This document shows positions 25,245 to 59,773 of a stretch of 64,000 bases of DNA, one piece after another. The position numbers and the translations under genes were made by a program. The DNA is from Dillenia suffruticosa. Lineage: Eukaryota; Streptophyta; Magnoliopsida; Dilleniales; Dilleniaceae. Position 1 is the stretch's first letter. Each line of letters opens with the position of its first letter. The notes beneath the pieces are model-generated. The model saw nothing but the letters and a program-made list of their open reading frames with translations, searched no databases and had not been told where the DNA came from. The stretch spans positions 1,862,501-1,926,500 of the forward strand of contig JAVTVX010000030.1 in NCBI GenBank assembly GCA_033439265.1. The letters run 5' to 3'.

Positions 25245-26109
25245 ATGGACTACGTCACACTTCTCATACTACTCTGCATTCTATGGACAGCCATTAATGT
25301 CGTCAAACCAGGCCGCCGGCTCCCACCCTGCCCGCGCGGGCTTCCGATCATTGGGAACACAATACAATTAGGTACCTTGCCACACCAAGCCTTAGCCAAA
25401 CTCTCTCAAGCTTATGGTCCAGTCATGTCACTCAAACTAGGTACCATGACAACCATAGTCTTCTCATCCTCGGATGTTGCCGAAGAAGTTCTCAAAAGTC
25501 ATGATAAAAATTTCGCTAACCGACCCATCTTGGATGCAGCGCGCACACTTGACCATTACAAGCGGTCGATCGGATGGCAGCCAGCAGATGCACATTGGAG
25601 GTTTTTAAGGAAGATATGCAGCACAGAAATTTTTACTGTGAAACGGCTTGAAGCAAGCCAAGGCCTGCGCCAAAGAAAGGTGCAAGAATTGCTAGACCAT
25701 GTGCTAGGTGCAGCCAAACAGGTCGAGCCGTTCACATAGCCCAAGCGGGGTTCACCACATCACTAAATTTCGTATCAAACACCATCTTTTCTAGGGACCT
25801 AGCTCATTATGACTCCAAAATGCCACATGAATTTATGAGGCTTGTGAGAGGCTTTTCGGAAATTATAGTTAAGCCTAATTTGGCCGATTTTTTTCCAATA
25901 CTAAGGTTCTTGGATCCACAAGGTATACGAAAAAAAACAGAATTTTATCTGGAAAAATTGATGGCAATACTTAATGATATTGTTGATACAAGGCTCGAGT
26001 CGGGTGGGCATGGCAATAATGATGACATGCTCAACACACTTATCAAGCTCCACCATGAAAATGATTCAGAGTTTAGTCGCAAGGATCTAAATGTTCTTCT
26101 TCTGGTTGG

Positions 26110-26154
<45 letters not shown>

Positions 26155-27204
26155 TCTATTAACCCATAAGTAACGTTTTCTCTCTTCTGTCTCATCTATT
26201 AATCCCCAAGCAATGCTTTTTCAATGAAAAGATATGTTAAAACATTTTTTATCTATATATCTATATTAATAATCAAAATATCAATCATAATTATACTATT
26301 AATTAATACGAATTCATAAGTTTATATATTAGAAAAATAAAATTTAACATGCAGATGTGGAATAAAGATAGATATAAATTTTATGGAATAAAAATATTAT
26401 AAATTTTGAACGACATTTGCTGAAATACTTTTTAAACTTAAATTTTCTTTCCTTCAAGTTTCAGAAGGACAGCGGCTACCAGTACACCGCTGCCTACTTT
26501 TTATTTATTAGCAATCACTTTTAACACAATTAAGTTTAATATTTTTTTCTTTATGTACAGAAATCTTATTATGCCTAACATTCAACTTGACTTAGGATCT
26601 GCTGGTTGGGGGATCAGAAACAACCTCAATCACATTGGAATGGACAATGGCGGAGTTACTAAGGCATCCCAAAACACTGGCAAAAGCTCAAGCTGAACTC
26701 AGAGAGGTAGTAGGCAAGGGCAAAATGGTCCAAGAATCCGATATTTCAAAACTATCCTACTTACAGGCAGTGGTTAAAGAATCACTAAGATTGCATCCCA
26801 TAGTTCCAATTCTCATACAAAAATCTGCAGCTGAAGTAGAGATCTCAGGTTACACTATACCTAAAGACGCCCAAATATTTGTAAATATTTGGTCCATTCA
26901 GCATGACCCAAAAGGATGGCCCGACCCGTACTCTTTCCAACCCGAGAGGTTTTTGGATAGTAAGATAGATTTTAAAGGGCAACATCTTGATTTTATTCCA
27001 TTTGGTGCTGGAAGAAGAATTTGCTTGGGACTTCCATTGGCAGATCGGATGCTGCATTTGTCCTTGGCCTCTCTTATTCACTCGTTTGATTGGAGACTTG
27101 AAGGTGGAATGAAGCCGGAAGACATCGACCTAAGTGAACAATTTGGGATGACATTGGGAATGGTTGTGCCCCTCAAAACTATTCCTCAAGTTTTGCAGCT
27201 TTGA
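25245..27204 (+). pseudogene. P450-E, nearly intact CYP76 with one frameshift
   Basis: Exon 1 (25245-26104) opens MDYVTLLILLCILWTAINVV but lacks about five codons at the hinge (GRRLPPCPRG, with PPGP changed to PPCP). Near 25707 two bases are missing relative to the family (GTGCTAGGTGCAGCC against GTGCTAGAGTGTAGCC), shifting the frame. The second frame then runs open to the GTTGGC donor. Exon 2 (26596-27204) is fully open, with I-helix DLLVGGSETTSITLEW, ExxR, PERF, and haem FGAGRRICLG. Its C-terminus is replaced by TIPQVLQL instead of AIPIKT. An otherwise good exon structure suggests recent inactivation, or an assembly error at one place; the hinge deletion argues for real decay. Confidence 0.85.
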
Positions 27205-43225: not shown

Positions 43226-43505
43226 ACTGTAATTATGCTATTTTTTTTAATCCCCTAAACTTGGTCTACCGTCGAGTATTCGGAACTTTATTCTGACTAA
43301 TCTCGGCCGAGCTACTGTCGGGTCCCAATCGGGAGAGAGCTCTCCCAACGGCGTTTTTACTACTACCAAAACTCGAATCCCTATTCTTGATGTTGGGTGT
43401 TAGTGTCATTCCCACTAGACAACGAAGCGTTGGTTACTGTAATTATGCTAGGTGTTAGTGTCCTTCCCACTAGACAATGAAGCGTTGGTTATTGTAATTA
43501 TGCTA
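43226..43505 (-). mobile_element. Au-like SINE with target duplication in the P450-J promoter
   Basis: The 15-base target ACTGTAATTATGCTA occurs at 43226-43240 and 43436-43450. It occurs a third time, with one change, at 43491-43505. The body (43241-43435, antisense) has a tRNA-like head at its right end (GTCTAGTGGG, then GGGATTCGAGTTTTG as B box on the minus strand). Its tail matches plant Au-type SINEs (GATTAGTCAGAAT...). A second, 40-base copy of just the head lies between the second and third target copies. The insertion lies immediately before the TATAAAG core of P450-J. Confidence 0.85.
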
Positions 43506-43563: not shown

Positions 43564-44439
43564 ATGGACTACATAACACTTCTCATGGTACTCTCCATTC
43601 TATGCGCAGCCATCAATGTCCTCAAACTAGGCCGCCAGGAACCCGCCCGGCTCCCACCCGGCCCCCGTGGGCTTCCAATCATTGGGGACATGTTACAGTT
43701 AGGTACCTTGCCACACCAAGCCTTAGCCAAACTCTCTCAAACTTATGGCCCAGTCATGTCACTCAAACTAGGTACCATGACAACCATAGTCTTCTCTTCC
43801 TCGGATGTTGCCGAAGAAGTTCTTAAAAAACATGATAAAAATTTTGCCAACAAGGCCATCTTTGATGCAGTGGCAGCATTTGATCTTGACAAGCATTTGA
43901 TCGCATGGCAGCCAGCAGATGCACATTGGAGGTTTTTAAGGAAGATTTGCAGCACAGAAATTTTTGCAGTAAAACGACTTGAAGCAAGTCAAGGCCTGCG
44001 CCAAAGAAAGGCGCAAGAATTACTAGACCATGTGCTAAAGTGTAGCCAAACAAGTAGAGCAGTTCACATAAACCAAGCAGGGTTCACCACATCACTAAAT
44101 TTCTTTTCAAACACTATCTTTTCTATGGACTTAGCCCATTATGACTCCGAAATGTCAAAGGAACTTTTGGGGCTTGTGAGAGGCCTTTTGGAAGCTATTG
44201 GCAAGCCTAATTTGGCTGACTATTTTCCAACAATAAAGTTCTTGGATCCACAAGGTATACGAAAACAAACGGAATTTTATCTGGAAAAATTGATGGCAAT
44301 ACTTAATGATATTGTCAATACAAGGCTTGAGTCGGACGCACATGGCAATAATGATGACATGCTCAACACCCTCATCAAGCTCCACCGTGAAAATGAATCA
44401 GAGTTTAGTCGCAAGGATCTAAATTTTCTTCTTCTGGTT

Positions 44440-44479
<40 letters not shown>

Positions 44480-45387
44480 ATTAATCCCCAAGCAATACTT
44501 TTTCCATAAAAAGATGGGTTAAAACTTTTTTTTTGTTTATATATCTTTTTCATTAATAATTAAAATATGAATCATTATGAAAAGATATGTTATAAATTTT
44601 ATGTAATAAATAACGTTATAAATTTTCAATGATGAAATACTTTTTAAACTTAAATTTTCTTTTCCCTCAAGTTTCACGAGTACACAAATCTTATTTATTA
44701 TCAAGAACTCTTAACACTATTAAGTTTAATAATGTTTCTTTATGTACAGAAATCTTATTATGCCTAACATTCAACTTGACTTAGGAAATGTTTGTTGCGG
44801 GATCACACACAACCTCAACCGCATTGGAATGGACAATGGCGGAGTTACTAAGACATCCCAAAACACTGGCAAAAGCTCAAGCTGAACTCGGAGAGGTAAT
44901 TGGCAAGGGCAAAATGGTCCAAGAATCCCATATTCCAAAACTATCCTACTTACAGGCAGTCGTTAAAGAATCATTAAGATTGCATCCCGTAGCTCCAATT
45001 CTCATACACAAATCTGCAGCTGAAGTAGAGGTCTCAGGCCACCCTATTCCTAAAGATGCCCAAATATTTGTAAATGTTTGGTCCATTCAGCATGACCCGA
45101 AACGATGGCCCGACCCGTATTCTTTCCAACCTGAGAGGTTTTTAGATAGTGAGATAGATTTTAAAGGGCAACATTTTGATTTGATTCCATTTGGTGCCGG
45201 AAGAAGAATTTGCCCCGGACTGCCGTTGGCAGATCGGATGCTGCATTTGTCCTTGGCCTCTCTTATTCACTCCTTTGATTGGAGACTTGAAGATGGAATG
45301 ATGCCGGAAGACATTGACATCAGTGAACAATTTAGGCTATCATTGGGAATGGTTTTTCCTCTCAAAGCGATTCCAATCAAAACCTAA
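43564..45387 (+). CDS. CYP76-family cytochrome P450 with His in the I-helix (P450-J)
   Basis: Exons 43564-44436 and 44785-45387 give 491 residues. The intron is the shortest of the intact set (348 bp, GTTCGA...CTTAG). The anchor, PPGPRG hinge, WRFLR, ExxR (353-356), PERF and haem FGAGRRICPG with Cys434 are all intact. The I-helix reads EMFVAGSHTTSTALEW: the acidic residue of (A/G)Gx(D/E)T is His299 (codon CAC), and Asp292 is Glu. The acid-alcohol pair normally guides protons to bound oxygen, so this change should alter or weaken normal hydroxylation; it could also mark a new chemistry or early decay. The putative SRS1 segment (AAFDLDKHLIAW) is the most different in the array. A SINE has displaced the distal promoter. 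Confidence 0.9.
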
Positions 45388-45733: not shown

Positions 45734-46022
45734 ATGGACTACGTCACACTTCTCATACTACTCTCCATTCTATGGACAGCCATCGATGTCCACAAGCTAG
45801 AACGCCGGAAACCCACCCGGCTCCCACCCAGCCCCAGGGGTTTCCATCATTGGAAACATTTTTCAATTTGGTACCTTGCCACACCAAGCCATAGCCAAAC
45901 TCTCTCAAACTTATGGTTCGGTGATCTCACTTAAAGCTAGGTACCATGACAACCATAGTCTTCTCTTCCTCCGGTGTTGGCAAAGTTCTCAAAAAACATG
46001 ACCAAAATTTCACCAAACCGCC
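45734..46022 (+). pseudogene. P450-K, CYP76 N-terminal fragment
   Basis: Reads MDYVTLLILLSILWTAIDVH, then KLERRKPTRLPPSPRG, then shifts frame near 45845. Homology continues out of frame through the GPVMSLKLG and TTIVFSSS segment to AAACATGACCAAAATTTCACC (about 46022) and stops. It shares KLER and several small deletions with P450-G, so G and K are copies of one already damaged ancestor. Confidence 0.88.
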
Positions 46023-59036: not shown

Positions 59037-59773
59037 ATGGCTTCACCATCACCGATCGCGGTGAATTTAACGATCATGGCACTCTTAATCACCGCCGTCG
59101 CTTCAGCCACTCCGGCCGCCACATCCTACGTTAACCACACCGTCGGTGGCGACGCTGGCTGGTTCTTCAATTCCTCCACCAACACAACTGCTGCCGATTA
59201 CTCTAAATGGGCTGCTAATCAAACCTTCAATCTTGGCGACTATCTCAGTAAGTCAATCTGACGGATCTCATCTCTAATTTCAGAATGCATTTCAAATTTT
59301 GCTTTGTAACTCTCTCTCTCTCTACAGTATTCGGAACAAGTTCGAACCAGACGGTGGTTCAGACCTACAACGAAACGACATACAAGAGTTGCTCCACCGA
59401 CGACGCGCTCGATTCCGACACCTTCCTGTTCGACGGCGGCATTGACCAGTTCGGTCAGCCTCTCAGCATCGCCGTGCCTTTGACCATTGAAGGTCCCAAC
59501 TATTACTTCTCCGATGCCGACGACGGCGTTCAGTGCCAGCAAGGCATGGCTTTCCAGATCACCGTCAATCACGGTCTCGGTCTCCCTCCTAGTCTCAACC
59601 AGCCTCCTCCTCCGCCCTACTCCGAGCCTCCTCCTCCGCCGGATTCCTCTCTCTCTCCGCCTTCCACAGTCGCCGGCGGATCTAATGATGGTGCGTTTGG
59701 GGCCGTTGCTAATGTGCGCTTGGTGGTCGGCATGATCATCTTGTCAGTGGCAGGGGCCTTTTTGGTAATTTAA
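59037..59773 (+). CDS. Early-nodulin-like / phytocyanin-fold protein
   Basis: Exons 59037-59247 and 59328-59773 (80-bp intron, GTAAGT...CTACAG; phase 1) give 218 residues. An N-terminal signal peptide (to about residue 24, ...VASATPA) precedes a phytocyanin domain: VGGDAGW, YSKWAANQTFNLGDYL joined to IF across the intron, and two Cys (KSC and VQC) fitting the conserved disulfide. The usual copper His positions are not His (SNQTVVQ instead of the H..V segment, and VQCQQGM instead of HC..GM), so it probably does not bind copper, as in early-nodulin-like proteins. A Pro-rich linker (QPPPPPYSEPPPPP) and a C-terminal hydrophobic tail (VGMIILSVAGAFLVI) suggest an arabinogalactan-like, GPI-anchored wall or membrane protein. 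It is unrelated to the P450 array. Confidence 0.9.

What the first reader, a model, noticed from the sequence alone, without database searches (positions are those of the whole stretch)
44785..44820. His replaces the I-helix acid in an otherwise intact P450 (J)
P450-J reads AGSHTTS where all sister copies have AGxE or AGxD. The codon is CAC and the frame is open on both sides with all other landmarks intact. In P450s the acid next to the catalytic Thr helps deliver protons to bound oxygen, so a His here is rare and suggests altered chemistry or very recent loss of function.
Basis: partly seen in the sequence, partly recalled or inferred. Interest (0 to 1): 0.75.

Follow-up and report, generated by a model that had tools for sequence, protein, structure and literature searches.

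The report
Plant P450 with swapped oxygen-helix acid
One gene in a plant P450 cluster really does carry histidine where its sister copies carry aspartate or glutamate, but the gene looks intact and constrained, and histidine at this spot is known from other plant P450 families, so it is an interesting natural variant rather than something alien.

Summary
Gene J (exon 1 43564-44436, exon 2 44785-45387) encodes a 491-residue CYP76-like P450 with CAC (His299, 44806-44808) where the six sister copies in the window have GAA or GAC. The inferred ancestor is GAC (0.915), so one G-to-C change suffices. The five other landmarks checked and the splice sites are intact. J is not evolving neutrally: omega on its branch is 0.51-0.56, below 1 (p 0.0055 or 0.022 by tree) and not distinguishable from its sisters. 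Its amino-acid changes pile up in substrate-contact regions (19 of 47, 8.2 expected).
The "rare, so altered chemistry or recent loss" reading is weakened. CYP51 has His here, thought to deliver protons; soybean CYP712 and CYP734 are tabulated with His; a second CYP76-like gene of this genome (C5:15.34 Mb) gained His independently and is strongly constrained (omega 0.20). Of 97 P450 exons read from this genome, 5 lack the acid, 2 of them with His.
Best reading: a working, substrate-diverging CYP76-like enzyme with a CYP51-like His-Thr pair. Early inactivation remains possible: unlike copies D, E and M, J has a 265-bp SINE-like insertion beside its TATA-like box. No expression, read or enzyme data were available.

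The parts
43564..44436 (+). Exon 1 of J (291 codons, starts ATG, PPGP at residue 31, WRFLR at 122)
   Evidence: Pfam PF00067 5.3e-31 for the queried 43564-44433
44437..44784 (+). Phase-0 intron of J, donor GTTCGA, acceptor CTTAG; a CT run follows the donor as in the sister copies
44785..45387 (+). Exon 2 of J (200 codons plus TAA), I-helix motif to C-terminus
   Evidence: PF00067 7.7e-64; best PDB sequence match 5ylw ferruginol synthase 9.3e-65
44806..44808 (+). CAC = His299 at the I-helix acid position; inferred ancestral codon GAC
44809..44811 (+). ACA = Thr300, the conserved oxygen-activation Thr
44968..44979 (+). ExxR motif (ESLR) intact
45211..45213 (+). Heme-ligand Cys codon TGC in FGAGRRICPG
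43241..43505 (-). 265-bp insertion in J's proximal promoter, absent from sister copies D, E and M (A, B and C have different promoters and cannot be compared there). SINE-like in antisense (my reading): A-run at one end, 13-bp direct repeats 43228-43240 and 43493-43505, 55-bp tandem duplication 43390-43499, related stretches elsewhere in the genome
43503..43510 (+). TATA-like CTATAAAG, 53 bases upstream of the ATG (CTTTAAAG in sisters D, E, M), directly at the insertion edge

Best explanation
J is an intact CYP76-like microsomal P450 gene in a tandem array. On its own branch the ancestral Asp at the I-helix acid position changed to His, most simply by a single G-to-C transversion. Shown: the codon, the open two-exon gene, the other landmarks, branch-wide purifying selection. 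Suggested: changes concentrated in regions that contact substrate. Inferred: the protein is still a working monooxygenase in which His299, next to Thr300, takes over proton delivery to the iron-bound oxygen, as the His of the His-Thr pair is thought to do in CYP51, probably with a changed rate, pH dependence or coupling, and acting on a different substrate from its sisters. A second CYP76-like gene in the same genome (C5:15340383-15342066, minus strand, GATHTT) made the same acid-to-His change independently and is strongly constrained, so the swap appears tolerated in this fold.
For: Open gene and landmarks. Branch models: omega of J 0.56 (D+J tree) or 0.51 (star tree), against 1 p 0.0223 / 0.0055, against background 0.37 p 0.106 / 0.181. 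Neutral simulation, 2000 runs each: no stop in 5.2% of runs at dS 0.06, 2.4% at 0.08, 0.85% at 0.10, none at 0.12; J has no stop (the dS of J's branch was not fitted, about 0.09 is half of the pairwise 0.18-0.19 with D, E and M). In exon 2 J departs at 1 of 41 columns that are at least 90% conserved, as do four of its six sisters; the other two depart at none. Of 47 amino-acid changes on J's branch 19 fall in substrate-recognition regions, 8.2 expected, P 7.7e-5, against 3 of 29 silent ones. Second His gene: both exons open, FGAGRRICPG present, omega 0.196, against 1 p 3.5e-16, against background p 0.046 on the low side; the tree needs two separate His gains. Precedent: a CYP51 of this same genome carries AGQHTSS; helix-I His and helix-F Asp are thought to form the CYP51 proton channel (PMC7908997, PMC11089504, passages only); soybean CYP712 and CYP734 with His (PMC9048032); CYP734A inactivates brassinosteroids (PMC5036807 passage).
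Against: No expression, protein or reads. When on the branch the His arose is unknown, so constraint may predate it. J's omega is nominally the highest of the D, E, J, M terminal branches, and J has more private exon-2 residues (4) than its sisters (0-2) and than the median of 2 over 90 exons. Replacing the acid is often damaging: aromatase D309N loses about 95% of activity (PMC9366932 passages). J carries a 265-bp insertion beside its TATA-like box that D, E and M lack. The helix-F acid that pairs with His in CYP51 (register recalled) aligns with Val205 in J, though the alignment has a gap there. The recognition-site boundaries were set by me from memory, and J's excess over its terminal sisters is not significant (Fisher p 0.09). 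Tandem gene conversion could blur the branch tests. Exon 1 was not put through the conserved-column check.
Confidence: 0.52

Rival explanations
1. J is at an early stage of loss. Its promoter was hit by a SINE-like insertion, expression fell, and the catalytic acid was then lost; the open frame and low omega are inherited from earlier function.
For: 265-bp insertion between the upstream region and the TATA-like box, only in J among D, E, J, M, with identical 13-bp flanking repeats; related stretches elsewhere in the genome. Neighbouring copies look broken: exon-1 frameshift in the 25245 copy and a truncated copy from about 45734. Branch-averaged omega cannot see a late loss. J has 4 private exon-2 residues against 0-2 in its sisters.
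Against: No stop, frameshift or splice-site damage in 1,476 coding bases; 1 of 41 conserved exon-2 columns changed, no more than in four sisters; changes concentrated in substrate regions rather than spread; the stretch between the TATA-like box and the ATG is largely conserved.
Confidence: 0.3
2. His299 changes the reaction itself: slower or rerouted proton delivery favours peroxo/hydroperoxo-type steps, multi-step oxidation or C-C cleavage, as CYP51 performs, rather than plain hydroxylation.
For: CYP51, which carries the His-Thr pair, runs three reaction cycles to remove the 14-methyl group (PMC7908997 passages); J's substrate regions changed on the same branch as the acid; recurrence in a second gene.
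Against: No chemistry was tested. A CYP51-type pairing acid in helix F was not found at the aligned place. CYP734 carries His or Gln in soybean and CYP734A is a brassinosteroid-inactivating enzyme, recalled to be a hydroxylase, so His does not imply unusual chemistry.
Confidence: 0.13
3. Consensus or assembly error at one base; the true codon is GAC.
For: One base separates CAC from the inferred ancestral GAC; the site lies in a short CA run.
Against: The frame around it is clean; a second, unlinked gene shows CAT at the same position, so the state exists in this genome.
Confidence: 0.04

Closest known systems
CYP76 family (ferruginol synthase, PDB 5ylw, as nearest solved relative; that it is CYP76AH1 is recalled)
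   Same: P450 landmark set; exon 2 aligned over residues 1-198 of 200 with E 9.3e-65
   Different: Has Asp in the acid position (SDT in the alignment); J has His. J's subfamily was not assigned.
CYP51 sterol 14-demethylase, including L129 of this genome (confirmed) and L130 (same motif, not confirmed by its own search)
   Same: His immediately before the conserved Thr in the I-helix (AGQHTSS against AGSHTTS)
   Different: J sits with CYP76-type proteins (CYP51 was not in the tree), lacks CYP51's FGGGRHGCLG heme loop, and the CYP51 helix-F Asp aligns with Val in J
CYP712 and CYP734 of soybean
   Same: Plant families tabulated with His at this position (AGTH/ETS and AGKQ/HTT; PMC9048032 Tables 1-2)
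   Different: Other families; J was not compared with them by sequence here
Second His gene of this genome, C5:15340383-15342066 (L030/L066)
   Same: CYP76-like, acid replaced by His (CAT), open exons, constrained
   Different: Motif GATHTT (Gly-Ala order swapped); separate origin; 58% identical to J in exon 2

Membership tests
Cytochrome P450 superfamily | Pfam p450 domain, ExxR, PERF, FxxGxRxCxG with Cys ligand | tested here: met
   PF00067 on both exons; motifs at residues 353, 407, 427
CYP76 family | Best match to CYP76 enzymes and more than about 40% identity (family rule recalled) | tested here: inconclusive
   Best solved relative of exon 2 is ferruginol synthase, 9.3e-65 (that it is CYP76AH1 is recalled). 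Full-length identity to named CYP76 proteins was not computed, and no plant protein database was available.
CYP76 family | (A/G)GX(D/E)T(T/S) I-helix motif | tested here: not met
   AGSHTT in J; 14 soybean CYP76 tabulated with D/E. This is a motif departure, not a placement argument.
CYP51 family | AGQHTS-type I-helix with His before Thr | tested here: met
   His-Thr present in J, aligned with His of L129
CYP51 family | Overall sequence relationship and heme loop of CYP51 | tested here: not met
   J's top PDB matches are ferruginol and sugiol synthase; the first CYP51 entry has 8.2e-23 (best 60 of 95 shown); heme loop FGAGRRICPG differs from FGGGRHGCLG
CYP51-like proton relay | Acid in helix F pairing with the I-helix His | tested here: inconclusive
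   CYP51 Asp (register recalled) aligns with J Val205; gap next to it, E196 and E210 nearby; no structure model of the spliced protein was made
Pseudogene | Broken frame, lost landmarks or neutral omega | tested here: not met
   Open gene, omega below 1, landmarks present
Pseudogene | No expression | not testable with these tools
   No RNA data; promoter insertion noted

The most novel reading that the evidence does not exclude
Within one plant genome, two CYP76-like enzymes independently replaced the I-helix acid by His and converged on a CYP51-type His-Thr proton relay, giving working enzymes with changed coupling or multi-step oxidation on new specialised metabolites.
Probability: 0.2. Interest if true: 0.6.

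Novelty: new variant of a known kind. Interest (0 to 1): 0.38.

Why it matters
The acid-Thr pair is treated as a standard P450 element. Close tandem sisters with Asp or Glu beside a constrained His copy form a natural test set for whether His can replace the acid in proton delivery outside the families already tabulated with His, and the second, unlinked His gene provides a replicate. If J is active, motif-based screening that discards P450s without D/E would be discarding working enzymes.

Tried and rejected
Recent pseudogene by neutrality: rejected for the branch as a whole, kept as a rival for a late loss. Gene conversion patch at the I-helix: identity of J to the other copies in 150-column windows shows no abrupt switch around 44785-44820, but windows of that size would miss a short patch. 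CYP51-like helix-F partner acid: looked for by alignment, inconclusive. Helix-I motif words with His in the literature: six motif strings searched anywhere in the library, 10 papers hold one, 9 listed, and none of those 9 titles concerns a P450. A general search for plant P450s with a variant motif led to the soybean tables; two searches were further searches. I make no claim that a His CYP76 is absent from print. Papers: PMC9048032 passages and part 1 of 2 of section 14; PMC7908997, PMC9366932, PMC11354347, PMC11089504, PMC10654349, PMC11900375, PMC5036807 passages only; all others seen only as search listings. PMC11354347, PMC10654349 and PMC11900375 gave nothing used here. Structure prediction was not run: the spliced protein is not one open stretch of the window. 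Substrate-recognition boundaries, the CYP51 Asp register, the CYP76AH1 label and the 40% family rule are from memory.

Census limits: one search listed 150 exon-2 matches; 90 of the 150 were read (30 as loci, 60), plus 8 loci of the 121 matches, plus two CYP51 loci. One (L097, two stops) could not be aligned at the site. For the tree, L097 and two exact duplicates were dropped (90 to 87 rows); the 8 loci and the CYP51 loci were not in it. The frameshifted window copy was left out of the codon models.

Full report
Observation. Gene J runs from ATG 43564 to TAA 45387 with one intron. Its I-helix reads EMFVAGSHTTST; the His codon is CAC at 44806-44808. The six sister copies in the window have E (four, GAA) or D (two, GAC) there.

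Direction of change. With seven genes (A, B, D, E, J, M and outgroup O at C30:1849109) the ancestor of J at this codon is reconstructed as GAC with probability 0.915 and GAA with 0.082. One G-to-C change is enough from GAC; from GAA two would be needed. The reconstruction uses the D+J tree, which is weakly supported (70); the protein tree of the same genes and the exon-2 tree place J differently.

Constraint. With all branches free, J is the highest of the D, E, J, M tips (0.51-0.56 against 0.37-0.51), while A (0.93) and the A+B stem (0.82-0.86) are higher still. A neutral simulation over J's length leaves no stop in 5.2%, 2.4%, 0.85% and 0% of 2000 runs at dS 0.06, 0.08, 0.10 and 0.12; about 0.09 is half the pairwise dS of J with D, E and M (0.18-0.19). 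In exon 2, J differs at 1 of 41 columns conserved at 90% or more among 90 P450 exons of this genome, as do four of its six sisters; but it has 4 private residues against 0-2 in the sisters and a median of 2. So J was kept as a protein for most of its branch. This does not date the His change.

Where J changed. Of 47 inferred amino-acid changes on J's branch 19 lie in substrate-recognition regions, against 8.2 expected (P 7.7e-5); 3 of 29 silent changes do. Other branches show weaker or no excess (D 10 of 38, E 6 of 23, M 8 of 28, A 5 of 16, B 2 of 14, A+B stem 16 of 57). J against the pooled terminal sisters is not significant (Fisher p 0.09). The regions were delimited by me from memory with the list of changes in view, so this is suggestive only. 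It fits a shift of substrate better than random decay.

How unusual is the loss of the acid. I read the aligned residue in 97 non-CYP51 P450 exons of this genome: E 47, D 45, H 2, N 1, V 1, T 1 (90 of the 150 exon-2 matches, plus 8 loci, less one that could not be aligned). The second His is at C5:15340383-15340961 (L066), motif GATHTT, codon CAT, with an open exon 1 at 15341239-15342066. Seven relatives on C5 and C31 set beside it have Asp. Its branch omega is 0.196, against 1 p 3.5e-16. A tree of 87 exon-2 proteins needs two separate His gains; its well-supported branches force two, and none of 200 bootstrap trees gets by with one. Thus acid-to-His happened twice among CYP76-like genes of this one genome.

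Precedent. A pattern for the CYP51 I-helix found two places in this genome; one was confirmed as a sterol 14-demethylase relative (1.8e-100) and has AGQHTSS. In yeast CYP51 the helix-I His and a helix-F Asp are thought to gate proton uptake, and a human double mutant without that salt bridge was used to see bound lanosterol (PMC7908997); in Acanthamoeba CYP51 the pair is called the proton relay salt bridge (PMC11089504). The soybean tables list His at this position for CYP51, CYP712 (H/E) and CYP734 (Q/H), Ala for CYP711 and Thr for CYP722, and only D/E for CYP76 (14 genes) (PMC9048032). CYP734A enzymes inactivate brassinosteroids (PMC5036807). On the other side, in aromatase D309N removes 95% of activity (PMC9366932). 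His can therefore be found in working enzymes, but a bare swap in an acid-type enzyme may be costly.

Promoter. J differs from sisters D, E and M by a 265-bp insertion at 43241-43505, flanked by identical 13-bp repeats and ending in an A-run on the minus strand, with a 55-bp tandem duplication inside. A 144-base part of it (43255-43398) gave 40 scored matches in the genome, J's own included, the other 39 at 82-88% identity; 602 candidates were seen and only 40 scored, so this is a lower bound. It looks like a SINE (my reading; no family search was made). It ends at a TATA-like CTATAAAG 53 bases upstream of the ATG. Upstream of the insertion J stays 90% identical to E (398 of 444) and 92% to M (422 of 457). 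This could change or reduce J's expression and is the best argument for the loss-of-function rival.

Verdict. Its importance is moderate: an acid-to-His change in an intact, constrained CYP76-like P450, with known precedents in other families and a second independent case within the CYP76-like genes of the same genome. I think a working enzyme with a His-Thr pair is most likely (0.52), early loss next (0.30), changed reaction type third (0.13), sequence error least (0.04).

Noticed in passing
43241-43505: SINE-like 265-bp insertion in J's proximal promoter with 13-bp flanking repeats and an internal 55-bp tandem duplication; related stretches elsewhere in the genome.
   Followed up: partly
G000:C5:15340383-15342066 (L066, L030): Second CYP76-like gene with His at the acid position (GATHTT), open exons, omega 0.196, independent origin.
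   Followed up: yes
25245-27204: P450 copy with a frameshift in exon 1 (two overlapping open frames) but an open exon 2 with GGSETT; decaying copy or assembly error.
   Followed up: no
45734-46000: Truncated P450 first-exon fragment just downstream of J, frame broken as read by eye.
   Followed up: no
L008, L095, L122: Three other P450s of this genome without the acid: Asn (GGNNTT), Val (AGTVTT), Thr (GGTTTA).
   Followed up: partly
44443-44475 and the same place in other copies: A CT dinucleotide run follows the splice donor in J and in the other copies of the array.
   Followed up: no
59252-59773: Open frame with a weak plastocyanin-like domain (PF02298, 7.8e-05) and a proline-rich tail, phytocyanin-like.
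   Followed up: no
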